Positions 7,658 through 64,000 of a stretch of DNA of 64,000 nucleotides are shown piece by piece (within the stretch, counting starts at the first letter, position 1; each line of letters begins with the position of its first letter). Position numbers and translations under genes: made by a program. The notes beneath the pieces are model-generated. The model was given only the letters and a program-made list of their open reading frames with translations, did not search any database and was not told where the DNA came from. Origin of the DNA: Prunus persica (Eukaryota > Streptophyta > Magnoliopsida > Rosales > Rosaceae). The DNA lies in contig NC_034010.1 in the NCBI RefSeq assembly GCF_000346465.2, forward strand, positions 24,936,079 through 25,000,078. The letters are read 5' to 3'.

Positions 7658-10600
7658 GATAAATTATTGCCTTAGTTGCTCTTAGTTTCATTTCCTTGAA
7701 ACCCACTTATTTGGATTATGGAAAATTTAATTTTGAACACTGGTTATGAGTTCCAATCTACTCTACTTCTTCATCAGTTTTGATTGATAGGCATGCATTG
7801 CTTTAGAACAAGTTTCTGTGGTGTTTTGCTATTTTGAGTTGAATGCTGTTGATGGAAGTACGTGGATAATGTTTATGATGATGATTGCCCGTTTTGTATC
7901 ATTGGAAATATCTTAAGCTTAAATTCTTGCTGCTACATGTTTTGTCTTTTGTGAATCTCGTTCTCTTTCAAAACTCTCAATGATGTTCGTATGACTTTTT
8001 TGGATTATAATGTAATCCCTGTTTCTTTTGGATTTTATTGCACAGTATACTGTTTTTGTATTGTTTTATTTACTTTTTCCTTTTGTTCTTTCACGTAGAA
8101 CAACTGAAGGCAAATTCAGCACTGTCTGTAAAGGACTCTAAGGATGGAGGGTCTGATCACATTGCAGCACATACATTTACATTTCGTGAATTGGCAGCTG
8201 CAACAAAGAATTTTAGAGCAGATTGTATTTTGGGAGAAGGAGGTTTCGGTCAAGTATATAAAGGGCGCTTGGAGAGTACTAATAAGGTTCTTTACAAGCT
8301 TTGACCATCAACTGTATGAAAAGTTATAGTACCTTTTTTTCCTTTTTAAAACTTTTTTATGCCTCTCATTTCCCATGTCCAATTGGTGGTTTAACAATCT
8401 CACCTGAATTTTAAGATTTCTCGCTGGCATTGTAAATTTTTGTTTTAAAATTAAAATGAATTACATTTTTGGGGTTCAGTATATATCTGTATTTAGATCC
8501 TTTTCTAAAATATCTATTCAATATATATGCTGTATCTTCCATATTAAGTTTGTTGCGTGCTTTGAGTAAGTAGAATGTGGCAAAAGATAACTGAATTTGA
8601 AGTCATATTTTTTTGGTTAAAAACTATGGTCTTATGTAAAACTGAAAAGGTTAAGTGTTTGTGGCAAGCCTAAATCTGGACGTTCTCCAATTTAAGAGGC
8701 TCCAGTTCGCTTTCAGTCAGTGCAGATAACATGGATATACACATTAATAATCTTTGTTTAGTTAGTGCAATATGTTGGTGGGTTGGTTTTGTTTGCTGTG
8801 GGATTCTATCTACTTTCATTGAGATTTTTACCGTGAGTCTTAAAAGTCCTTTTGTTGTTGTTTCTTTGTGTTATGATATCTTTTTCTTTATATGCTAAGC
8901 TTTTGGTAAGAGCTGAACCTTGTTCCCTTTTGTGTAGGTAGTGGCCATAAAGCAACTTGATTCCAATGGGCTTCAAGGGAACAGGGAATTCCTTGTTGAA
9001 GTATTAATGTTAAGCCTACTTCACCATCCCAATCTTGTTAACTTAATAGGCTATTGTGCTGATGGTGATCAGAGGCTTTTGGTATACGAGTACATGCCAT
9101 TGGGATCTTTGGAAGATCATCTACATGGTATATACAGCAGTAACAGCACTAGATTCAATTATTTCTTTGCCCAAAGTTCATTATTTTTGTCTTGAGGTCT
9201 CTCTCTTTGTACTTGGTGATAAATTGATGTACACATACAATAATTGGGTCTTGCAATAGTAAAGATTCAAAGCTATAGAAATCAGTAGGATTTGACAATT
9301 ATAGAACTATTTAAATTAACTGTATGAAAAATAGGAAAAAAAAAAATTACTGTATAAGATAATTCTGGAAATGATCCAAAGTCATTTAATCATGCTCTTC
9401 TTAAGGTATAGAAATCTTGCAAGCTAACCAGCTAGCCATGTTGTGGAATATTAAATGTGTCAGCGGACTTAGAGTATGGGGCTTGAGCACCATTTTTATT
9501 TGTCTTCTATTTGGTATCAGTAATGTTGTTAATCACCTTCTTGATCTCACATGCTGATATATGCCAGATCTACCACCAGACAGAAAACAACTTGACTGGA
9601 ATACAAGAATGAAAATAGCTGCTGGTGCGGCAAAGGGCTTGGAGTATTTGCACGACAAAGCTAACCCCCCTGTTATTTATCGTGATCTTAAATGCTCAAA
9701 CATTTTACTTGGTGAAGGCTACTATCCTAAGCTATCTGATTTTGGCTTGGCAAAGTTAGGTCCTGTAGGAGACAACACTCATGTTTCCACTAGGGTGATG
9801 GGAACCTATGGATATTGTGCGCCTGAATATGCAATGACTGGTCAGCTCACATTGAAATCAGATGTATACAGCTTTGGGGTTGTTCTTTTGGAAATCATTA
9901 CCGGAAGAAAGGCAATTGACAATTCGAGGGCTGCTGGGGAACACAATTTGGTTGCATGGGTAAGAGAGTTATGCCTTCTGCTCTGCTTTAATATTTTTGT
10001 TTCTAAAATCATTTTCAGGAGTAAAGTTTTGTTTCTTCTTTATATATGCTTTCAACGTATTCTGTCACCTTCTTAGATTATCAGTATTCTGTCATGTTCT
10101 TATATTGGAGACCCTTCTAATTATATACCTACTTTCTGTTTTGGTAACAGTTTGAGTTTCGAATGTTATGCAACTGTGCTATGAGTTTTGATTTTCTCTA
10201 TTTGAAATATGGTATATGCAATATTGACCTACTAGACGGTGTGTACTAAAACTAATCTATTGGCAACACTCAAACGAATTTCCTTATGAGTTACCCTAAC
10301 AAGTAACAGCTGTACTATTTTACGGGTGAAAGCAACAATGGGAAGAACAAGCTCTTTCTTGCTAAATGGCAGTCTTGCGAATTTCTGCTCATTCACTCTT
10401 TGTTGCAGGCCCGCCCCTTGTTTAAGGATCGGAGGAAATTTTGGCAGATTGCTGATCCACTGCTCCAAGGTCAGTATCCGGTGAGGGGAATGTATCAAGC
10501 TCTTGCCGTTGCTGCAATGTGTGTCCAGGAGCAGCCTAATATGCGACCTCTCATAGCTGATGTTGTCACAGCCCTTACTTACCTTGCTTCCCAAAAATAT

Positions 10601-10672
10601 GATCCTGAAACGCGGTCAGTACAGAGCTCTCGCACAAGCTCATCCACTCCTAGACCTAGAAGGGAACTGTGA
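7040..10672 (+). CDS. Receptor-like cytoplasmic kinase, PBL7/CDL1-like (RLCK VII)
   Basis: Serine/threonine kinase of RLCK subfamily VII, which relays signals from plasma-membrane receptor kinases; Arabidopsis CDL1/PBL7 acts in brassinosteroid and immune signalling. Five exons join: 7040-7133, 8099-8286, 8938-9127, 9568-9959 and 10409-10672 (375 aa). Glycine loop GEGGFG is at 77-82, VAIKQ with the catalytic Lys at about 99, YRDLKCSN with Asp197, DFG at 215-217, and [11 protein letters not shown] in the activation/P+1 region. The 'YRD' form and the [14 protein letters not shown] tail are RLCK VII signatures. The N-terminus [11 protein letters not shown] has Cys6 for palmitoylation but lacks the Gly2 needed for N-myristoylation, which as I recall is present in Arabidopsis PBL7 (MGW...). 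A Lys-rich patch at residues 14-22 could aid membrane binding. A Ser/Thr/Arg tail follows the kinase domain. Intron 1 carries a (GA)n tract. Confidence 0.94.
7612..7653. repeat. (GA)n microsatellite in kinase intron 1
   Basis: About 21 GA units directly follow a short GT run (GTGCGTGTGTGTGTG). The tract lies within the first intron of the PBL7-like gene. Confidence 0.97.
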
Positions 10673-50200: not shown

Positions 50201-51033
50201 CATCTTTGGAACTGTATTTTACAGGTTAATCTCTGGTATGTCATTTCAATTTTGCTTTGGTTCCTTATGCTTTCCAGGTGTTATTTGAGCCGAAGCAATG
50301 GGACTACCTGGTTGACCAATTCAAACAGGAATTTTGCAAGTTATATGGCATGACTCTTGAGCCTTTGCTGAATATTTATCTGCAAGCAGGCCTGTCTGCT
50401 CTGAAAACCCCGTATCCATTAACAGTAGTTATTTATCCGCTACGTTATGAAAATTTAGTATTATCTCCCTTTTTTTTTGCTAACTTAGGGGTTGTAAGTT
50501 ATAATTTCCAGTCATCAGGTGGTCATAACGGTGGTTGACAAACCTACACTGTATCTCCCTTGATTGGTGTTTGGGCACTTCTCATTCACCTTTAGCACGC
50601 GAGTGCATGCATTATAGCTGCTAATTGTATCCCGATATGTTGTTTAGCCTTGACCTGAATCAGATACTGTTACGACGATGATTGCACCAAGGAGGATCCA
50701 CTATCACAGGAGGGTTTCCGGAAACTAGCCCAGCCATTACCGTATTCTAAGCAGCATCACTCGAAGCTTGTTTGCTACATAACTAAGGAACTAATGGACA
50801 CAGAGAACCCGCCACAAGTCTTGCCCAATGGCTATGTCTACAGCTCTAAGGTTCGCATGCATTTTACTAGTATTGTACGATCTTGGCTACTTAGTCTGGA
50901 AATATTCTTTACTTATTTTACGTTTTGGCAGGCTCTTGAAGAAATGGCCAGGAAAAATGACGGTAAGATTACTTGTCCAAGGACAGGTTTGGTCTGCAAT
51001 TATACAGATCTGGTGAAGGCATATATATCATAA
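47243..51033 (+). CDS. MAEA homologue (GID9-type subunit of the CTLH/GID E3 ubiquitin ligase)
   Basis: LisH/CTLH protein with a degenerate Gid-type RING at the C-terminus, a core of the GID/CTLH E3 ligase. Seven exons join: 47243-47554, 47901-48095, 48647-48769, 49439-49624, 50278-50411, 50664-50850 and 50932-51033 (412 aa). LisH: LNRILVDYMLRMSYYDTAAKL (first 20 residues shown within exon 2). CTLH: IDVFQEAKKVIEALQNKEVG to FEFQLRLQEFIELVRAENN. The RING-like tail includes SSKALEEMARKNDG and ITCPRTGLVCNYTDLVKAYI. The first roughly 35 residues are Pro/Ala/Ser-rich. Intron 5 (50412-50663) has U12-like splice signals (see findings). The 3' end of this gene is duplicated about 11.5 kb downstream. 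The start is the first Met of the conserved frame, after a TATA-containing promoter. Confidence 0.93.
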
Positions 51034-52019
51034 ATTAAATCCGCATATTGTGGCCTGTTCAATTATTCAAGTTTATTATCCATTCGTACCGGGCTTTGTA
51101 ACATTTAGAATGTCCTGTGCTTACTGTACATAAATCTCTTACTGCTGGATTTGGCACAAATTCCGGTGTAAGAACTTGCCCTGGGAAAATTATGGTCATT
51201 GCTCAACCTGGCATTACCATTGGGAACTTGAACATGTATATATGCAAAATTACATTTTACACTTTATTATCAAGTTCCTGACCAAAAGCTATTCTACATT
51301 GCTTTTATTGGATTTATTAGCATTCTTCGACGTGTACAATATGGGACTGTGGAGGAGTGGGGGCTTAGGGTTCAGTTTCAAGTTTCAATGAAAGTAAGAA
51401 TGATGCATTTACTAATTTGATATAGCAGGGTAGAAGAAAATAAGCCAAGTTGCTGTATATTTTGTTTGTATTTTGTAAGTTTGGGGGGTACTCGCTGACC
51501 TATAAAATGCAAGTCATTTCAAGGTCGTGCAATCATGTTGAGATATTCAAACCGCGATTAGCGAGGGATTTTCCCCTAATCACACAACAAAATAATGCTC
51601 CATAAACCAAATCCGTATGTATTAATTGGCATGTGTGAATGGACCTAAAACCAATCTCCCAGAATGTAGTAAAATTGTTTTTAAAATGAGAGTCTAGAAG
51701 TTTGTTTGGATTGTCTGGAATCTGGATCGTCATAACGCTATTAACAACTATGAAGTTTTAATTAAATAACAATTTGCATGTTACACCTGAGGTTTAGTAT
51801 TATTATTTAGATTAATTTGGGTCATCAACCAGAAAATTAATCTTTGATTTCTTGGTCACTTAGCCACAATTATTGTTTACAATGAAGTTGCCTCTCATTG
51901 GCCACACTAGTGGGAAGAGTTTGCTCATGAATTAACTACGTTATGAACAAAATTTGCTTTTAGTTGGTGAGAAAGAAGTAAACTATTAAGAAAAAAATAC
52001 TTGGCATTGGCACCTTAAC

Positions 52020-52549: not shown

Positions 52550-55500
52550 ATGGCGCCTACCGGTGAAGAGAACGTTGCAAGGTTTAGTTTCCACAACTTT
52601 AAGTACGTGCACCATTTTCATTTTTCCTTTCTTAAAAAAATGTTCTATCAAACAATAGGACCTGCATAACTGCATATACGGCTGTGTTGCAATTTAACGA
52701 CAGCCAAATATTTAATCATTTTAAAGTTATTCTCTTATCTGGACGTGCAAAATATTTCACACGCTTATAAAGAAAGTTCTTACATTATCAAACTTTCTCC
52801 CTCTTAATAGGATTTTGTTATTTTGGTTCCTTTTTTTTGTTGAGAGAGTTACTTGGGTTCCTTAAAATGCTTTCTTCTATCTGATAGCCGTAATTTTATA
52901 TGTTCTTTGTGTCTCTTACCCAGCAGTTTAGCGGATGATCCGAATTCAAACACGGTAACGGAAAATCCTGCCCCGCCCGAAGATTTACAAAAATCATGTC
53001 TAAAGTGGAATTTCATATTTATAACATCATGTGTGTTTGCCGTTTTACTGGATCCTTTGTTCCTCTACATTCCTATCCTCAACGACGACATCAAGTGTCT
53101 GAAGTTGGACAACAACTTAAAGATTACAGCTCTCATCTTACGATCGGTCACAGATCTATTTTATATAGCCAATATTATTTTTCAAGTTTGTAGATTTGAA
53201 AATTGTTCACCTTCGATCAAGCGATTTCTTCCCGAAAGTTGCTCCTCCAACTTAATAACATCACTCATCAAAAGCTTTCGTGAGTTATTACCTGAAGTAA
53301 GCAACGAAGTTCCAAAACCAAGTATAACTAAAGAGATACGGGAGTCGTCCATCATAGTTGACATTTTAGCTATTCTTCCTCTTCCACAGGTACGAACAAA
53401 AGCCTTCGCTTTGATCTAGACTCTAGATCGAGTAGTTAATTGCTTTTCCAATCTCACTGTTTTTGTCTGCATGCAATGGTGGTGTGCTAGTATATATTTC
53501 ACTATGAATAATTGAAATGTGATATATTATATTGCACCCCAATACATGAAATGTGATACAGGACAGGCAAATATCTAAATTAATTCAATATTTTGTCTCA
53601 CGATATGTTAACAGTTGATATTAACATTGCAATGTGTCCTGGCCAGGTAGTAATTCTCATTTTCTTTTCAAAAATGAGGGCCTCAAGATCTTTCAGGAAG
53701 CTCATGAACTTTCTTGTTATGGTGCAATATGTACCACCACTACAAGAAAAAAGTCATTCAACAACACACATTGTGCATTGTTGAAGGGTATTAACAACAT
53801 GCGGTGCACGTTGTTGAAGCCGATGTCGTTAAAAAGTTCACAGCTTTCAACAACACGCTTCGCATGTTGTTGTTGATATTAGTGCTCGTTGTCAACACCA
53901 GTAAATGCAACGCACGCATGTTGTGGAAGAGGCTGACAACAACTTGTTCAGCGTGTTGTTGAATACCTAATTGACAACGTTCATATGCACGTTGTTGTTA
54001 ACTTTTTAACAACAGCCTTTGCACGTTGTGATATTAAATATTATTATGTTATAATTATTTCCAATCGCTATAATCACCTTATTGCATGAAAAATACATAA
54101 TCCGTTTCATTTTTTGTTGCCTTTCCATCAACAAAAAACCGTATCAATTACTTATTAATATTCAAAAGCATACAATATCAAAAGTACAATAAAATAAAAT
54201 AAAATCTAGAAGATTGAAGTATTCTAGGACTTCTAACTACATGCCTAATTACAAGAATAAACCTAAACCAAATTGATATACATGATTATCCTACAAGTCA
54301 AGTTCTACATATATAAATGTATACCTTCATAATCACTAAATAAGGTACACTTAAGCTTCTCCTTTATAGTTCTTTCACTTGTACCAATATCAACAAACTC
54401 TTCATCACATAATCTACCAAGCTGATCCTTACCATGCTTCCAAGCTTTTTTCACCCTCTTAAATATCTTCTGAAAAGGTTTGGACAATAAAAAACAGAGA
54501 TAATGATTTTCTAAACATAAACTATGTGCATTGAGAAAGAAAAAAAAATGCACACGTAAGTTTCAATAAATAGTATAAGAAAATATGAATAATACTTACA
54601 ATTCGGGATGAAGCTGCTAATGGAACCCATCTATCCAACCCACATTGAGAACATATATATATAATTGCTAGTAGTTAGTTTGTTAGGATTTGATCCAATA
54701 GTTGTGGATGATAAACATTCACATTGAGCTCTTCAATTATCTCGTGTTTTGTAATTCACACTATCTTCATTACAAACTTGATTTCGCATCGTTAAAGTAA
54801 TCTTTTATGTCTGTTAAATCATGCACTTTTTCTAATATCACATAGAACCAAACACAAAATGCCAGAAAATCCACCAAAAAGAGAAAGAAAAAAACATGTA
54901 AAAGTTTAAAATATGATAAATAAGAACGATGACACTTAAATGAATGTGCGAACGAAGGACTTGCTTTTCCCTTCACTAGAAGCAACGATCCTCATTCTGG
55001 TCTCCACCTTCTAGATTCAATTTTACAAGTGTTAAAAGACAAGAATGCAAGGCTTTGAACAGAGAAGCATTTACTAATATATAACTGACTTCCCAAAATA
55101 TGAGGATATACCATTACCCCAATCAGTAGTACTTATAAAATTAGGATAAAAAGAAAACGATACAAGCACATGCACCACTATTGTAACCTCAGAAAAAATG
55201 TTAGAGCATAGTTTATATGAGATTACAGATTCTATGCAAATTTTGGGATCTAAGAAGGTTGTTCTAGCTTTATAAAACATACATAGAACAAGCAATCCAT
55301 ACATACCTCAAGATCAATAGCAAGCAGGGCAGCCATCTGTGTGTGAATTAGTTGACAATTGAGACAAACAAATTCTTACATGAATCAGTATATCCAGCAA
55401 AATGATTCTTTTTCTCTTATGAATTTCCTCTCTTGAATTTCCTGCAAATTGAATTGAGGTTCAGATAAAAAACACATATAAAGGAATGAATTTTAAAAAA

Positions 55501-55794
55501 AGAAATAAGAAAAAAAGAAGACATGTAAGAACTGAAAGACCAAGTCGAGATGGTTAAAGACTTGACTCTGCTCCAAGCCATACTCAACAAAACTACTATC
55601 TCAAAATTGCCACCTTTCTTCCTTTTCCTTTCTTAGCCAAAAAATTTAGGTTTTTCTCAGTAGCCTCATACTCCTAAATGATTTAGATTTGGGTAAACTA
55701 TAAACGTACTCCACAAATAAAATCAATCTATGTTTCCATCAATTGTTGGTAAAAATTCAATCACCAATAAAAGCATAAACCATGAGGAGCAAAG

Positions 55795-55843
<49 letters not shown>

Positions 55844-58800
55844 CATACATAGGTGTTCAATTGCCTAACAAAGCTGGAGAGGGTATTGTGCTTCAAAAAC
55901 TTGGGCAGGAGGTCCCTAGCGGACTCTGGTAGGTTCTAAACAAACCAAACACAAGCCTACATAGGCCAACTATCAATAGATGCCAAATCACCAAATTCTG
56001 CATTCAAGAAACCGATACAGTATATGGAAATGAAAAGCAAATTCGAAATAATTAAAAAGAATTAAGAGAAAATGAAGGGAAAACAACAAATATTGCAAAT
56101 TAAAAGAATAAGAAGAAAAAGAAGTACTCTGTAGAGGAGAGTATCGAAGGAGTACTTGGAGATTTGTTCCTAGAGACGGTTCCATAGAGATGACGAGTTT
56201 TGAAATCGATTTGTTCTGACTTACAATTCACTACCCAAATAGTTTAACCCTAAAGCATATTAGGAACATTGAAATCGATTTGTCAAAACCCCTAGACCAT
56301 AATCCTAGATTGAAATACCATTAAGCTTGATTTGAATAATCTAAATCATACATAGTTAAAAAGAGAGAGGAAGAGAAGCAAAGCTTTTACCTGTCATAAA
56401 GAGGCTGAGAGTGTTGGATAATCTACTCGGGAATGGAGGAAGAGGCTGGGAGAGAGAGAGAGCCAACGACAAACAAAAAACCAGATTGTGAGAGAGGAGC
56501 GACATAGAAGGCCAGCGCAAGAGATGGAGAGAGAAGAAATGAGAGTTTAGAAGATAAAGAGAAAGACCAAAGAAAGAGAGGAGACGATAAAACATTTGAG
56601 AGGGAGACTGAAATATTTAGTGGAACAGTGCGGGAGTTTTTCCCACAAAAAAATTCGGCTAGTTTTTTCAGGAATTTTTTTACTGTAGTAAACTGATATA
56701 GTTTTGACAATATGCGTTGCATGTTGTTGAACTCCATATACAACAACACGCACAGGTGCGTTGTTAGAACTTCCCCAAAATTCCATTTCCACAACGAGCA
56801 CTAAATGCACGTTGTTGAAAGTTGTATAACACAACATGCACCTTCTGCACGTTGTGGAAAGTCTAATTCCACAACGCTAACTTACGCACGTTGTTAATAA
56901 CGTGTTGTCATAGTATATTTTTCTTGTAGTGCACGAGTTCTTCGCATCTACCTATCATGCAAGAAATCTAAAAAACCTTTCAAAGGACAGATTGCATTGT
57001 GGGTTAAAGGTGTACTCAATTTTTTTTTGTACATCCTTGCTAGTCATGTAAGTTTCAATTTCATCATAATTTTAATTTTGAAAAGTTAATCTACTTTAAA
57101 TTAATGTCGAACAAACATTGTTTTTTTATTTGATATAAGCTATAGTCTAATTATTCTAAATTAATCTAATTTACGAGGATGAAGATTCGAACTTGAAGAG
57201 GGTGGACTCAATGTCTTGGTCAACTGGCCTAACCCACATATACTGGACTAGCATTATTTGATATCTTATTTCTTGATAAAAGTTTAGGTTCATAATACTC
57301 AACCTCATGTGAATAAAAAAACATGTATGTAAACACAAACATGGTGCAACCATGCAATATGACCATCATGACAACAACAACAATAGGAGGTGCATATTCA
57401 TATTGAATTATACTCGCAAATACAATGACGTTCCTTATAATTTAACTTCTGTGAGAACTAATCTTGGGAGGCAAATCCTTCCGTGAGAACTAATATCGGG
57501 AGGCAAATCCTCCCAAAATTTGACAACATTAATCATTTAATAACACATGAAATTTTCTTTTTATGAGAACTTATTAGTGTTGTTTAAAATTTTCTTAAAA
57601 GTTCAATCTAACTAGCTTGTTGGTTTCTTTAGGTACTTGGGGCTTTTTGGTACTTTTTTGCTATTCAACGAATAACAAGTTGCTGGCAACATGCATGTCG
57701 ATATGAAAATGGATGCGACCCTACTTCTTTTGACTGTAATGATCATCATACGTTGAGAAATATTACGGTTCTAAATGATTTATGCTCTATTAATCCATCA
57801 AATACAGCTCTATTTGATTTTGGTATATATCTAAATGTCCTTCAGTCGGGTATATTGTGGTCAACAAACTATCCCCTGAAGTTTTTAAATAGTTTTAGTT
57901 GGGGCCTGCGGAATTTGAGGTTTGTACATATGACACCCTTTGATCTTGCAGGATGAGTTATAATTACAAATGTAACTAAAAATACTTTTTTTTAAAAATG
58001 TGTTGTGATCTATTTCATTTTTGCAGTTCTCTTGCTTCAAATCTCCAGCCAAGTACCAATACATGGGAAATCCTGTTTGTGACTTTTATATCTGTAATCG
58101 GCTTGCTACTATTCGTATATCTCATTGGGAATTTGCAGGTTGGTGTCGTGAATCTTTATATAAAATTGCTTTCTTTAAGCTTATTAAATCTCCTGATGCT
58201 TCTTTTTTACGCATCTTTGTATATATTTTGGTCCGCTTTTTATATCCCTGTATCTCTGGATATATATATATATATATATATATAATAAATTAGAATTAAT
58301 GAACTGAACCTTGTTGTTGTGAAATAGACCTATGTGCTGTTAGATACAGAAAGATTAGAGTCGCACAGACGCAAGATGAAAATTGAACAGAAGTTGACAG
58401 AAAAAGTAGGCCCAGATGTAGAAAAATGGTTATTTGAAAATGGCGTCCCCATGAGTACAAAGTCGGAGGTCATGTCAAAGGTACGACAAGAACTTGAAGA
58501 AAACTCCGATATTGATGTAAAAAAGGAAATCCTCTCTATTCTTCCCCATGAACTTCTAAACTACATAGAAAGTTGCACGCCCTTGAGTAGGCTGAGGAAG
58601 GTACGTAGGCCTCATGCAAGTCTGGCCACGTCATCACTTAACGGATTCTCAAACAATAATTTTAATGGCAGAGTCACATTACAACAAAATGACAATTCTG
58701 AGGTACGTGATTGTTAAAATTGAAAGTGCAAGGATTAACATACCTTAAAGAGTACAACTACATAATTAACCATTCATTTTTTTACCACAAATATATGATT

Positions 58801-61048
58801 ACTAGAAATGCTCTTTACATTGACGATTGGAGAAGCTCTCATATATGTAACACAAACCCTTCCACAATGATTGGTTATGAACTTACTAGATTTTCAATTG
58901 CTGGTTCCATTTCTTAAATATTGTATCTAAACGTAGGTACCACTACTTCGAAACATGGACGAACAAGTTTTGAGAGAAATCTCTAAGCATCTTAAGCCCA
59001 AGAGGTATAAAAATGACATCATTATTAGAGAGGGTGAACCACTTGAAATGATGCTTTTCATCGTGGACGGATGTGCAATCATTGAAAAGACAGATTGTAC
59101 TCATAAGTTGAAGCTAAGCGAAGGAGATTTTTATGGAGAGAAACTTCTAGTTTGGCCATCATGGACGTCCTTCCATGAGGGGGCAAGACCCATAGCAACC
59201 GAGTCTGTTTCAGCTAGTTATACGGTTGAGGCCCTTGTTCTCTTGGCCAGCGACATGGCTAGTATAGGCACTAAATTCAGGTCACATTTCAACATGTTGG
59301 AAATGAGTCATCTAACGGATTCTGAGTGGGAGCTTTTGACTTGTGACAAGGTGGCTATGCTACAACAAGTAAGTTCCTCTCTCAGAAACACATATCTATA
59401 CATTTTTTTTGTACAAGTGATATGTATAGAGGGAGGGGAAAATCCAACCTAGAACCTCGTGAGTATGTTAACCACTTGAGCAACAAGCTACTTGCGACAT
59501 ATCTATACAATAATATTAATATTACTTATTTGATTATATAATTTTCTCTTTAAGATTGTTAAATTAATGGATCTACCCTAGGTGCCAAAGCTTCGAGCTA
59601 TGGATAAACAAGTATTGAAAGCAATGGCTGAGCATCTTCTACCGGTTTGCCATGGACGCAATTTCAATATCATTCAAGAGAACCGACCGCTTAGTATGAT
59701 GTTCTTCGTCACGAGGGGAGAGGTGATGATAAAAAATAATGGGAAGGGTCGTGGACCTTTTTTTGGAGAAGAACTTGTTGAGTGGGTACTGGATAAGTCT
59801 TTTCCTGAGATGCTACCCTTGTCCACCTGTACAGCTACAGTAGTCTCAAACGATGCTGAAATCCTCTATCTAAAGGCAGAAGCCTTGAAGAATTTTGCCT
59901 CTAACTTTAAGTCGCATTTCAGCAAGATCGCCTCGCCCTCAGATCTTATTACTTTTGTTCGGTTGACTAGGTTAAAGAAAGTAAGTTGCTCCATCTCTAT
60001 CATGAAATAACTATTTAAAACTTAATGTACAATATTTTTAGATTTGCTTTTTTTATATATTTGTCTGAATTAACAGTATCATATCTATCTAACTCTAGGT
60101 GAAAATATTTCAAGAAATGGACAAACAAGTGTTGGAAGCAATCTCCAAGCGTCTTAAGCCCAAGGCCTACTGTACTGCCAACGCCTATATTATTCGAGAG
60201 AACGAACCACTTGAAATGATGTTCTTCGTGGTGCAGGGAGTTGTATCCATCAAAAGCGATAGCACCATCGAAGGGTCAGAAACCCGTGAAATGGGAGGTT
60301 TCTATGGAGAAGAACTTGTACATTGGGTTACAACTTGGGCATCACATAGCTCCTTTCCTGCCAAACTACCTTTGGCAACTGGTTCTGCGCTACGCGGCCC
60401 CCGTCCTGTTAAAATCCTTGCTCTCACAGCCGACGACTTGAAGAGTGTAGTCTCTGATTTCAAGTCCACGTTGTTCACAAGGGAGACTCAGATCACCCTC
60501 CCTCCATACTTGCCGTCGGAGCCTTTGACTGGTGATCTGTTGACTATGCTAAAGAATGTAAGTTCCTTTATGTGTGTGTGTATATATATATTAATTAGTT
60601 AATGTTTATACTTAATTCTCTCTTCTTTTGTTTAAACAAATAATTTGGTATCTATTTAATCTAGGTGGAAAGGCTTAAGCATATGGATGAGCAAGTGCTG
60701 AAAGAAATAAGTGAGCATCTTAGGGTAGAAAAGTATCAAGATCAGTACATTATTAGATTGAACGAGTCAGTGGAAAAGATGTTCTTCATCGTGAGGGGAG
60801 TTGTGACGGTGACAAACGAGTACTGGACAGAACACCGCAATGAAGCAGAACGTTCAAGTCACGGTGGAGATGACCTTATAGATTATTGGGTGCGATCTAA
60901 AGATACTGCCTTTCCTAAGGAGTTGCCCATCTCTGCTTTAAGTTTTCGGGCCATCGGTGAAGTTAAAGTTCTGGTTCTTATGGCCAACGACTTGGCTAGG
61001 GTTCAGCCTTGTCGAATTCGTAGTAAAACTTTTCTTCTAAGAAACTGA
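52550..61048 (+). CDS. CNGC-type channel gene with four tandem cNMP-binding-like domains, interrupted by a CACTA element
   Basis: Plant cyclic-nucleotide-gated channel family. Exons: 52550-52602, 52927-53389, 53647-53737 plus 56935-57047 (one exon split by the transposon), 57633-57919, 58027-58138, 58328-58600, 58937-59368, 59582-59980, 60099-60557 and 60665-61048. Skipping the insertion they form one open frame of 1021 aa. S1 is in [21 protein letters not shown]3 in [17 protein letters not shown] and S4 around VQYVPRVLRIY. S5 follows [18 protein letters not shown], the pore is [11 protein letters not shown], and S6 is [20 protein letters not shown]. The C-linker ends in [13 protein letters not shown] [10 protein letters not shown]. 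The filter triplet reads ASN (GQN is usual). Four domains follow at about 465-608, 609-741, 742-894 and 895-1021, each starting with a V..L..MD.QVL motif. No IQ/calmodulin-binding tail is present. The CACTA element splits the codon of Arg203, so the reference allele is probably non-functional unless the element is spliced out or lost. Confidence 0.82.
53738..56931. mobile_element. Non-autonomous CACTA (En/Spm) transposon, 3194 bp
   Basis: Begins CACTACAAGAAAAAA and ends TTTTTCTTGTAGTG, the canonical CACTA terminal inverted repeat. It is flanked by the 3 bp target duplication CAC (53735-53737 and 56932-56934). Both subterminal zones (about 53760-54030 and 56700-56910) are packed with GCACGTTGTTG-type motifs in both orientations, as in transposase-binding arrays. 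No transposase-like frame is seen; open frames are short and low-complexity. The interior has a (GA)n tract and a GA-rich block at about 56345-56600. Confidence 0.95.
55799..55841. repeat. (GA)n microsatellite inside the CACTA element
   Basis: About 21 GA units. The tract is inside the transposon, so it could be carried to other sites with the element. Confidence 0.96.
57172..57245 (-). mobile_element. SINE-like tRNA-derived fragment in CNGC intron
   Basis: On the minus strand, A-box-like TTAGGCCAGTTGACC and B-box-like AAGTTCGAATCTTC occur about 35 bp apart. No poly-A tail or target duplication is clear, so this may be a truncated copy. It lies in the intron following the S4/S5 exon. Confidence 0.4.
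57451..57514. repeat. Two-copy 32 bp tandem repeat
   Basis: GTGAGAACTAAT.TT/TC.GGGAGGCAAATCC occurs twice in direct succession in a CNGC intron, with three or four differences between copies. Confidence 0.8.
58260..58284. repeat. (TA)n microsatellite in CNGC intron
   Basis: About 12 TA units lie between the S6 exon and the C-linker exon. Confidence 0.9.
58937..61048 (+). repeat. Array of four duplicated cNBD-encoding exons
   Basis: Exons 58937-59368, 59582-59980, 60099-60557 and 60665-61048 each start after ...TAG with GTN and are flanked by phase-0 introns. They encode paralogous units: [57 protein letters not shown] and [19 protein letters not shown]. Each continues with an II-R-E/L-NE-P-MMFF beta-roll. 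Units 1-3 keep an (F/Y)(F/Y)GE(E/K)LV-like cassette; unit 4 has lost it and ends early. Intron ends before units 2-4 are also alike (CTAG preceded by TCTA). The array arose by exon duplication. Confidence 0.88.
59403..59496 (-). mobile_element. Short SINE in intron between cNBD exons 1 and 2
   Basis: Minus-strand A-box-like GCTCAAGTGGTTAAC and B-box-like GAGGTTCTAGGTTGG, with an A tail (ACAAAAAAAATG) at its 3' end, are flanked by perfect 13 bp direct repeats ACATATCTATACA (59390-59402 and 59497-59509). Confidence 0.8.
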
Positions 61049-62164
61049 AGTCTGCAAGTCTGATTGAATTAATTGCCAAATGCAATTGCAATAATGAACT
61101 CTTAATCAAATTTTATTAACTACTTTTTGTTGAATTCGGTGTCATTTTTAGTCAATTAATTAGCAAATTATGCTTGAAATCTTTTGTGCTTTTTGTGATT
61201 GTAGTATGCATCTGATCATCCACTTGTTTGGAAAAGTTGCTAAGTTGAGTATTGGTAATTAACTAAAACGTTGGTTTGAGAGGACGAATTTATTATAAAA
61301 AGACTCTAGGAAGTCCAGATCTACTGTTGGTGCTATAACTTAACATTTCTTTAAAAAAAAAAAAAAAAAATACTGCTGGGCTCCTGACAAATATATACAT
61401 AACTATATGGGTGTTTACGCGTGATTTTATTATTTTTAAGGTGTTCGTCAATTATATTATATGATTTCTTGGTCTTTCATATGTGTTTATAAATTATAAT
61501 TCATACGGGTTGCTGCGGGCACAAGTCTTGCTGCCAATTGCCTCTCATTGGGTAGCAGGATGAGTTTTTTTTTTTAATGCGGGGTAGCCGGATGAGTTGC
61601 TAAGTTGACTTGCTTTGCTTTGATTTATTTTTTTTTATCTTGAGGGGAAGTTTATTATAGATTATTGTTTTAATATGAAATTTATTATAAATTACTGTCA
61701 TGTTTAAGGTCTTAGTCAATTAGCAACCTGCAAATTAACGTTTGAAATCTTAATTATTTGCCTTTTGTCTTCTTTGGTGTTCCTAGGATGCCTATCACTG
61801 TTTTCTTAGCCCCACATTAATTAATGGAAATATCAACATAGAAAAATCAAAATCTGGACTCATACTATCATCAAACATTCAAAACATTACAGCAGTGAGA
61901 GTAATTTAGCACACTTTTATTATCTCACAAGGCACCGACTTAAACTAACCAATTAAATATATATCATTCGAATAGTCTCATTCTCTTGACCGTTAATTTA
62001 GTCCAATTTGATCCAAACGGTTAATTTGGCACACTTGGGATGTCATTCGAATAGTCTCATTCTCATATATCAATTACCAAAGTTCTATACCAATAGCAAC
62101 CTTTCCCCCCTCTGTTTTTTTTTTTCCCTCTGTTTGTCCTCTGTTTTTTTCCTCTGTCAAACCA
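61049..62164. other. 3' flank of the CNGC-like gene
   Basis: AT-rich and without an exon. A 22 bp sequence, TCATTCGAATAGTCTCATTC plus TC, occurs twice at 61964 and 62043. No IQ-domain or calmodulin-binding exon could be found downstream of the stop codon at 61048. Confidence 0.5.
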
Positions 62165-62330
62165 AACAATGTTGCTCCCTTTATTGGCATTTAGACACTT
62201 CTCATTCACCTTTAGCACGTGAGTGTATGCATTGCAGCTGCTAATTGTTTTGCCTTATCTAAGACAAGTAGTCCGTCTCTTTATAAGCTCATGCTAAGTC
62301 TCTTAGTTTTTCAATATACTCCGAACACTG

Positions 62331-62545
62331 CCCAATGGCTATGTCTACAGCTCTAAGGTTCGCATGCATTTTACTAGTATTAGACAATCTTGGCTATGCC
62401 GTTTGGAAATATTCAGAACTTATTTTTTATTTGGCAGGCTCTCGAAGAAATGGCCAGGAAGAATGACGGTAAAATTACTTGTCCAAGTCCAAGGACAGGT
62501 TTGGTCTGCAATTACACAGATCTGGTGAAAGCATATATATCATAA
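62331..62545 (+). pseudogene. MAEA 3'-end pseudogene fragment (part of exon 6, intron 6, exon 7)
   Basis: Carries PNGYVYSSK, the intron, and ALEEMARKNDGKITCP...TGLVCNYTDLVKAYIS with the stop codon, near-identical to the functional gene. It has an in-frame 6 bp tandem duplication (CCAAGTCCAAGG) adding Pro-Ser inside the RING-like tail. Exons 1-5 and the 5' part of exon 6 are absent, so it cannot make a protein. Confidence 0.9.
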
Positions 62546-62676
62546 ATTAAATCTACATATTGTGGCCTGCTCAATTATTCAAGTTTATTATCAATTCGTA
62601 CCGGGCTTTGTGACTGTTAGAATGTCCTGTGCCTACTGTACATAAATCTCTTACTGCTGGATTTGCCCTGGAAAAA

Positions 62677-63442
62677 GAGTGCTGCTATTTCCACCCACCT
62701 ATCCTATTTTCCCACTCACCTTATCTTCCCATTCACCATGAAAATTTGAAAAATCACAATCCTATCTTTGCACCACCATTATTCCTAAAATACCCTTCCA
62801 TTCACTTAACACTTTTAACCCTAACTTAACACTATTAATTGAGTCCGAAAAAATTTAAAAGAAAAAAAAAGGTTTTCAGCAACCACCCACCGCACACTCC
62901 ATCAAACTTTAACAAGAACCACCCATACGTTCCACCTCGGGCCAAGCATCCCCTCCTCCGGCCTCCTCATGTCTCTTTCACCATTATTTCAGTTGTATTG
63001 ACCAACACCTTCAAACCCCAATCTAACATTCTTCTCCTCTCTCCATTTCAATCAACCCATGAGAAATATTATATCAATTGGCCCAGATCTAAGACGACAC
63101 TTTGACTGCATTGCCTGCCAAAGTCGCTCATCCTAGTCTTCATCAATATCAGCAACTTCATGGCCTTTATTCCTCCAAGTTTCCAATTTAACTATTTCTT
63201 AACATCAATCAATCTTGGTCGTCACGGGGTTGGGTGGGTAGTCTGAGGGTTGTTTGCTGGGCTCTTTTATTTATTTATTCTAATTTTCTGTTTTTATTTT
63301 TACTTATATTTTCTTGACTTAACAGTGTTAACTTAGAGTTAAGTCCTTAAAAGTCATTTTACAATAAGTTAAATTTGCTTTAAAAATTTTGAAGATAAGG
63401 TGGGTGGGAAAATAAGACAGGGTGGTAGGAATAGCAACACTT
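62677..63442. mobile_element. Non-autonomous TIR transposon, 766 bp
   Basis: Left end GAGTGCTGCTATTTCCACCC and right end (reverse complement) AAGTGTTGCTATTCCTACCA start long imperfect inverted repeats. These continue through TATTTTCCCAC(T/C)CACCTTATCTT for at least 45 bp. An 8 bp target duplication TGGAAAAA flanks it (62669-62676 and 63443-63450). The undisturbed paralogous site at about 51180 (CCCTGGGAAAATTATGG) confirms the insertion point. Long inverted repeats suggest a Mutator-like MITE; the 8 bp duplication would also fit hAT. No transposase frame. Confidence 0.85.
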
Positions 63443-64000
63443 TGGAAAAATTATGGTCATTCCTCAACCTGGCATTACTATTGGGAAATTGAACACGTAT
63501 ATATGCAAAATTACGTTTTGCAGTTTATTATCAAGTTCTTGCCCAAAACCTATTCAACACTGCTTTTATTGAATTTATTAGCTTTTCTTCAACGTGCACG
63601 ATAACGCGAGTGTGGAGAAGTAGGGGGCTTAGGGTTCAGTTTCAAGTTTCAATGAGAGCAAGAATGATACATTTGCTAGCTTGATAAGTTGAACCAAGTT
63701 GCTGTATTTTGTTTACCCGAAAAGGTATCCTTATAAGATGGCGGCGGTACTCGTTGACTCTATAAAATGCAAATCATTTCAAGGTCTATGCAATCATGTA
63801 GAGATCTTTAAACGGCAATTGTGTTTAGATCCCATTACTGAGAGGTTTTCCCCTAATCACAACATAATATTGATCCTTAAATCAAATAGTGATTCCTTTC
63901 TGTTTTTTATGTTGACTATATATATACATACATAGTAAATTGCATGTGTAAATGGAGCTACACTAATTTCTAAAATAATTTGTAAAATTGTTTTCAAGAT

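What the first reader, a model, noticed from the sequence alone, without database searches (positions are those of the whole stretch)
58937..61048. Channel gene with four tandem cyclic-nucleotide-binding-like domains
Seen: four successive phase-0 exons encode paralogous cNBD-like units on the C-terminal side of a six-helix channel, in one open frame. Known: plant CNGCs, animal CNG/HCN and KAT/AKT-type channels carry one cNBD per subunit. Inference: symmetric 0-0 exons let the domain be multiplied without breaking the frame, giving a channel with up to 16 sites per tetramer, or extra domains used as oligomerisation or decoy modules. Frames of all four units are free of stops despite clear divergence, which suggests selection for some time after duplication.
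Basis: partly seen in the sequence, partly recalled or inferred. Interest (0 to 1): 0.88.

Follow-up and report, generated by a model that had tools for sequence, protein, structure and literature searches.

The report
Plant channel with four repeated domains
A plum-family plant gene descended from calcium-channel genes carries four copies of the channel's usual single control domain, an arrangement also annotated in relatives such as rose and bramble, although the copies look unable to bind the small messenger molecule they are named for and this particular gene copy is interrupted by a jumping gene.

Summary
The four units are real: exons 58937-59368, 59582-59980, 60099-60557 and 60665-61048, all phase 0-0, 31-45% identical in pairs, each matching plant cNBDs weakly to clearly. 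The window is Prunus-like; the same layout is annotated in apricot, almond and other Prunus, and four-unit relatives in Rosa and Rubus. One clade for all Prunus units is rejected, so the array seems older than the Prunus-Rosoideae split. The 20 named non-Rosaceae homologues have one unit.

Two corrections. A 3,194-bp CACTA transposon (53738-56931) splits exon 3, so this copy cannot encode an intact channel unless the insert leaves the RNA. And '16 cNMP sites' is not supported: the arginine that fills the pocket of plant CNGCs is kept in none of 105 sampled Rosaceae units.

Best reading: a Rosaceae-specific, CNGC-derived channel whose cytosolic part grew by duplicating one symmetric exon into cNMP-independent contact or regulatory modules. 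A related branch fuses the channel to a kinase. No report turned up in the capped listings of 10 open-library searches; a subscription Rosaceae CNGC survey was unreadable. Transcription of the four-unit form is unproven.

The parts
52550..52602 (+). exon 1 (putative start ATG)
   Evidence: almond model P0005 begins alike
52924..53389 (+). exon 2, S1-S3 region
   Evidence: tblastn of almond P0002, 90% identity
53647..53737 (+). exon 3, 5' part, up to the transposon insertion
53735..53737 (+). target-site duplication CAC (left)
53738..56931 (.). CACTA-type transposon inserted in exon 3; terminal CACTACAAGAAAA repeats, subterminal AACAAC/GTTGTTG repeats; taken as non-autonomous
56932..56934 (+). 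target-site duplication CAC (right)
56935..57047 (+). exon 3, 3' part
57633..57919 (+). exon 4, S5-pore region
   Evidence: phmmer to AtCNGC1 9j34
58027..58138 (+). exon 5, pore-S6 (pore motif LSSLASN)
58328..58600 (+). exon 6, C-linker; a second in-frame donor at 58703 gives a longer exon (to 58702) as in the almond and apricot models
58937..59368 (+). cNBD unit U1 (phase 0-0)
59582..59980 (+). cNBD unit U2 (phase 0-0)
60099..60557 (+). cNBD unit U3 (phase 0-0)
60665..61048 (+). cNBD unit U4 and stop codon
50536..51612 (+). 3' end of the upstream gene; copy 1 of a segmental duplication flanking the channel gene
   Evidence: self-blastn, three pieces at 78-90% identity to 62155-63887
62155..63887 (+). 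copy 2 of the same stretch, downstream of the channel gene

Best explanation
This is one copy of a Rosaceae-specific gene lineage derived from CNGC1-like channels. In it the single symmetric exon that encodes the cNBD was tandemly duplicated into four diverged units, most likely before Prunus and Rosoideae separated (supported by trees, best for U1 and U3). Proposed working (inferred): U1, next to the C-linker, takes the normal place in the cytosolic gating ring. U2-U4 form a further cytosolic layer that acts by protein contacts, not by binding cyclic nucleotides. The tail also lacks the calmodulin-type IQ motif, a loss shared with a single-unit relative and so probably older than the array. 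The number of units changes by exon gain or loss and possibly by exon skipping. The copy in this window is probably non-functional as a channel because a CACTA element sits in exon 3.
For: Gene anatomy. Four-unit channel models in P. armeniaca, P. dulcis, P. campanulata, P. brigantina, P. persica, P. avium, Rosa and Rubus. Of 147 collected homologues (overlapping models and isoforms included) 30 hold four or more unit matches over 40 bits, all named Prunus, Rosa or Rubus; the 20 named non-Rosaceae ones hold one. U1 of Prunus plus Rosoideae 22 rows SH-aLRT 99, U3 18 rows 95; all Prunus units in one clade rejected, p-AU 6.2e-6. Channel-core tree: Rosaceae clade 100/99, multi-cNBD branch 91/91. 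Predicted structure of almond P0002: the unit region is mostly at pLDDT 70-94 with dips at joints and has the strand-helix order of a cNBD four times; closest solved folds are CNGC1 and CNGC15b, then tandem-CNB kinases PKG and PKA-R. Pocket arginine in 0 of 105 sampled Rosaceae units against 8 of 8 non-Rosaceae CNGC1-like proteins. No C-terminal IQ-like match in P0002 and P0020. Almond models with four units (P0002) and with U1 missing (P0005).
Against: No transcript across the units was found. Some annotations show units without a channel (P0014 P. avium, P0121 P. mume, P0126 and P0127 Rosa). Paralogue dN/dS of 0.44-0.75 shows only weak constraint; identity to Rosa is 74% for S5-pore-S6 but 55, 46, 46 and 37% for U1-U4, though S1-S3 is also only 47%. 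U2 positional grouping p 0.283 and U4 support 78; the AU groups were named after the tree was seen. IQ-like matches are absent also in single-unit P0075 and kinase-fused P0058, so the array did not cause that loss. Ion_trans was not found in P0002 at E 0.01, though the database lists it. The arrangement of the units in the model is untrusted (pTM 0.44). The contact-module role is inference.
Confidence: 0.66

Rival explanations
1. The four units are true cyclic-nucleotide sensors and the tetramer carries up to 16 ligand sites.
For: The cNBD fold is kept in the predicted model of the almond relative, as is the G-[ED] start of the cassette in all four window units.
Against: The arginine of the canonical STRT motif is replaced by E, C, G and L in U1-U4. 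MtCNGC15b, a plant CNGC, shows negligible cNMP binding and lacks the animal phosphate-binding arginine (PMC12284214, passages).
Confidence: 0.08
2. A decaying array: after the ancestral gene lost its role the units drift, and the window copy with its transposon is one stage of that decay.
For: CACTA element in exon 3; dN/dS 0.44-0.75 between units; units diverge faster than the pore; several annotated fragments.
Against: All four frames are stop-free in the window and four-unit channel models are annotated in six Prunus species plus Rosa and Rubus; grouping by position implies long retention, best for U1 and U3.
Confidence: 0.15
3. The units belong to a separate soluble multi-cNBD gene lying just downstream of a channel gene, and gene predictors fuse them.
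For: Unit-only models: P0014, P0121, P0126, P0127; no transcript joining was found.
Against: U1 follows the C-linker exon at a phase-0 junction and lies where AtCNGC1 has its cNBD; without it the channel would have none. At least 12 Prunus and 4 Rosoideae models in the listing join channel and four units. There is no stop in frame from U1 to the end of U4 and the unit introns are only 107-213 bp.
Confidence: 0.08

Closest known systems
Plant CNGC1-type channels (AtCNGC1 9j34, AtCNGC5 9j35, MtCNGC15b 9kcu/9kcv)
   Same: Six-helix core, C-linker and cNBD; closest in sequence and fold.
   Different: Four cNBD units instead of one; no pocket arginine; ASN in place of GQN in the filter region; no C-terminal IQ-like match in the relatives tested.
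Rosaceae CNGC-kinase fusions (e.g. P0054, P0058, P0031)
   Same: In the same Rosaceae clade of the channel-core tree (100/99); their placing as sister group is weak (83/47). The members sampled also lack the pocket arginine; Malus and Pyrus members have 2-3 cNBDs.
   Different: Carry a C-terminal protein-kinase domain (Pfam Pkinase E 1.4e-46 in P0054); in Malus and Pyrus the cNBDs are set apart by 60-70 residues.
Plasmodium cGMP-dependent protein kinase PKG
   Same: Several tandem CNB domains in one chain; best non-channel fold match of the model (E 4.6e-22).
   Different: Soluble kinase that binds cGMP (recalled); no channel; a domain-level fold resemblance only (TM about 0.12-0.15).
[quoted passage not shown]
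   Same: More than one CNBD per chain.
   Different: There the whole channel is repeated; here only the cNBD exon is.

Membership tests
Plant CNGC channels | Descent: channel core groups with CNGC1-like proteins | tested here: met
   Core tree with window exons 4-6; phmmer to AtCNGC1 E 5.5e-64
Plant CNGC channels | Uninterrupted six-helix transmembrane domain | tested here: not met
   In this copy exon 3 is split by the CACTA element; read through in P0001-P0003
Plant CNGC channels | One C-terminal cNBD | tested here: not met
   Four units
Plant CNGC channels | CNGC cassette motif with GEEL...STRT | tested here: not met
   GEKL/ATES, GEEL/STCT, GEEL/ATGS, GDDL/SALS in U1-U4
Plant CNGC channels | Calmodulin-binding/IQ region after the cNBD | tested here: not met
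   Pattern test on relatives, not on the window itself: no C-terminal match in P0002 and P0020, nor in P0058 and P0075; match in P0081, P0089, P0092, P0102
Plant CNGC channels | Cation conduction | not testable with these tools
   Needs electrophysiology
cNMP-binding domains (Pfam PF00027) | Score above Pfam gathering threshold | tested here: not met
   Each window unit alone 16.7-20.8 bits against 27.5; the whole almond relative, 54.2 bits, passes
cNMP-binding domains (Pfam PF00027) | cNBD fold | tested here: met
CACTA transposons | CACTA-type inverted termini and 3-bp target duplication | tested here: met
   CACTACAAGAAAA at both ends, CAC duplication
CACTA transposons | Transposase gene | not tested
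   Longest stop-to-stop frames listed inside the element are 125 and 109 aa; not searched for transposase

The most novel reading that the evidence does not exclude
Rosaceae evolved a modular signalling channel family in which one symmetric exon is repeatedly duplicated, lost or skipped to build cytosolic towers of 3 to 7 cNMP-independent cNBDs, and in a related branch a kinase domain is bolted on. The tower, not a ligand or calmodulin, sets gating or recruits partners, and the fast turnover in tandem gene clusters resembles that of immune receptor loci.
Probability: 0.3. Interest if true: 0.82.

Novelty: new variant of a known kind. Interest (0 to 1): 0.62.

Why it matters
Channels of this superfamily usually have one cNBD per six-helix subunit (recalled), and whether plant CNGCs are gated by cyclic nucleotides at all is disputed. 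A natural lineage that multiplies the domain while losing the pocket residue is a direct test case for a cNMP-independent, structural role of the plant cNBD. The related kinase fusions would join ion flux and phosphorylation in one plant protein.

Tried and rejected
Sixteen cNMP sites: disfavoured on pocket residues and the CNGC15b work. Prunus-only expansion: rejected (p-AU 6e-6; group named after the tree was seen). P. armeniaca models with eight units (P0136, P0137) look like neighbouring four-unit genes merged by annotation, since in P0136 a second partial channel stretch lies between the sets, so I do not read them as eight-unit proteins. A first motif count for the fused kinases was invalid because 'DFG' also occurs in the channel part; it was redone downstream of the last cNBD. 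dN/dS against orthologues was not done: the collections offered hold no plant DNA that I could search. The unit counts use a profile built from these same homologues, so they do not independently test domain identity; Pfam and PDB searches do. P0122 reaches four matches only with two partial ones, and P0112 (Quercus) shows a second match of 18 bits that I did not count. The protein searches score only the candidates sharing most words (7994, 7996) and one search listed 120 of 145 hits, so multi-cNBD CNGCs outside Rosaceae are not excluded. The unit tree used 111 units: 43 of the 120 listed proteins plus the window; six more proteins were added for the residue count, whose 105 Rosaceae units (one from an unnamed source) all come from hits to this clade, not from ordinary Rosaceae CNGCs. 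Literature: 10 searches listed no paper whose title or abstract start names multi-cNBD or kinase-fused CNGCs; several listings were capped (for example 15 of 477 and 15 of 63), and PMC6749817, which holds the phrase 'two CNBD', was not opened. The Rosaceae CNGC survey (doi 10.1007/s00299-021-02778-2), seen only as a reference-list entry, is not held, so prior notice there cannot be excluded.

Full report
Observation. The gene lies on the + strand. Exon borders found in the sequence are 52550-52602, 52924-53389, 53647-53737 plus 56935-57047 (exon 3, split), 57633-57919, 58027-58138, 58328-58600, then four unit exons 58937-59368, 59582-59980, 60099-60557 and 60665-61048. The last five exons join in one frame of 648 codons plus stop, and every unit junction is phase 0 with GT-AG introns. 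The units share 31-45% amino-acid identity in pairs. Each matches Pfam cNMP_binding weakly, at E 4e-4 to 7e-3, under the gathering score. Against solved structures the spliced exon 4-to-end protein matches AtCNGC1 at E 5.5e-64 over exons 4-6 and U1, U3 alone at 8e-15 and U4 alone at 9e-7. By composition the chance of 557 stop-free codons is about 1e-15; the other forward frames of the units and the introns hold stops.

Exon 3 is interrupted by a 3,194-bp element with CACTACAAGAAAA ends in inverted orientation and a 3-bp duplication CAC. This is a CACTA-type transposon with subterminal repeats; the longest frames listed inside it are 125 and 109 aa. Reading on from exon 3 meets stops inside it. 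Related proteins of apricot, almond and P. campanulata read straight through this place. The window copy is therefore probably unable to make an intact channel unless the insert is removed from the RNA. The channel gene also sits between two copies of the 3' end of the upstream gene (50536-51612 and 62155-63887, three pieces 78-90% identical), which points to a tandem segmental duplication; peach locus numbers of related proteins (PRUPE_2G222500 to 2G224000) likewise suggest a cluster on one chromosome.

Relatives. The best homologues are P. armeniaca P0001 (91%) and P. dulcis P0002 (89%) over the whole query, followed by other Prunus, Rosa, Rubus, Fragaria, Argentina, Malus and Pyrus. A unit profile run on the 147 collected proteins gives 30 with four or more matches over 40 bits, all named Prunus, Rosa or Rubus; these include isoforms, overlapping models, unit-only models and two merged models. 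The 20 named non-Rosaceae proteins have one. P. avium P0008 has six units, of which four are U1-type and none U2-type. Almond P0005 equals P0002 without U1, which suggests exon skipping, as annotated.

History. In the tree of 111 units (quick method, few columns) U1 of Prunus, Rosa, Rubus and Fragaria form one clade (22 rows, 99) and so do U3 (18 rows, 95). U4 of both groups is together at support 78, and U2 together is not rejected (p 0.283) but not shown. Holding all Prunus units in one clade is rejected (p-AU 6.2e-6). In the channel-core tree (48 rows) a Rosaceae clade of 36 rows (100/99) holds a multi-cNBD branch (18 rows, 91/91; Prunus 100/100, Rosoideae 87/77), a single-cNBD group of 4 (100/100) and a group of 14 (100/98) made of kinase fusions and two Maleae proteins without kinase. 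How these three are related is weakly supported (83/47). Within the 14, Malus and Pyrus proteins have 2-3 cNBDs that group apart from the Prunus-Rosoideae units, so cNBD multiplication probably happened at least twice. The Prunus-Rosoideae split is many tens of millions of years old (recalled).

Function. AlphaFold2 on almond P0002 with 36 sequences gives mean pLDDT 70.4 and pTM 0.44; the unit region is mostly at 70-94 with cNBD-like strand and helix order, but the relative placing of the units is not to be trusted. Fold matches are plant CNGCs first, then tandem-CNB kinases such as Plasmodium PKG. The paper on MtCNGC15b (passages) reports negligible cNMP binding, a pocket filled by its own Arg553 facing Glu533 and Glu534, and inhibition by calmodulin. 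By spacing I map Arg553 to the R of STRT (inference). That arginine is present in 8 of 8 non-Rosaceae CNGC1-like proteins chosen and in 1 of 4 Rosales/Fagales singles, but in 0 of the other 105 units, which are Rosaceae hits to this clade including the four window units (one of unnamed source). P0002 and P0020 show no C-terminal IQ-like match, but neither do single-unit P0075 and kinase-fused P0058, so that loss is not due to the array. The pore motif is ASN in the window and the Prunus relatives tested, GSN in the Rosoideae ones and in P0058, P0075 and P0089, and GQN in P0092 and P0102. I therefore expect a channel or channel-like subunit free of cNMP and of IQ-type calmodulin control, with U2-U4 as contact modules. 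This last step is inference.

Selection. Between window units Nei-Gojobori dN/dS is 0.44-0.75 with dS 0.7-1.5, so constraint is present but weak and averaged over old duplications. Identity to Rosa P0020 is 47% for S1-S3, 74% for S5-pore-S6, 51% for the C-linker, and 55, 46, 46 and 37% for U1-U4. Orthologue dN/dS could not be computed.

Limits. No transcript joins the four units in what I could search; some annotations hold units without a channel (P0014, P0121, P0126, P0127). The window's own genome could not be searched. Novelty in print is judged only from the capped listings of 10 searches in an open library; the 2021 Rosaceae survey was not readable.

Noticed in passing
P0048-P0067, P0030-P0038 and others (homologues): Rosaceae CNGC proteins with a C-terminal protein-kinase domain fused after 1-3 cNBDs. 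P0054, of unnamed source, is a 909-aa channel-kinase frame on contigs of at most 3,239 bases, which fits a transcript better than an intron-bearing gene (inference). Of 40 such proteins examined 6 keep VAIK, HRDVK and DFG downstream of the last cNBD; the other 34 lack at least one by this strict pattern.
   Followed up: partly
window 53738-56931: CACTA-type element inside a coding exon with 3-bp target duplication.
   Followed up: yes
window 50536-51612 and 62155-63887: Segmental duplication of the 3' end of the upstream gene (looks like a MAEA/GID9-type gene, recalled; no significant Pfam match) flanking the channel gene; a further copy of the array may lie beyond the window.
   Followed up: partly
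P0008, P0138 (Prunus avium): Annotated proteins with six and seven cNBD units; in P0008 four are of the U1 type and U2 is missing.
   Followed up: partly
P0024, P0028 (Rosa chinensis, Argentina anserina): By eye, a C-linker-like stretch repeated about three times before three cNBD units.
   Followed up: no
window 58601-58702: A second in-frame donor would lengthen the C-linker exon by 34 codons; the almond and apricot models P0002 and P0001 carry this stretch, P. campanulata P0003 does not.
   Followed up: partly
window 8011-10672: Kinase gene (tblastn match of kinase-fusion proteins; looks like a receptor-like cytoplasmic kinase, recalled); an ordinary neighbour, not part of the finding.
   Followed up: no
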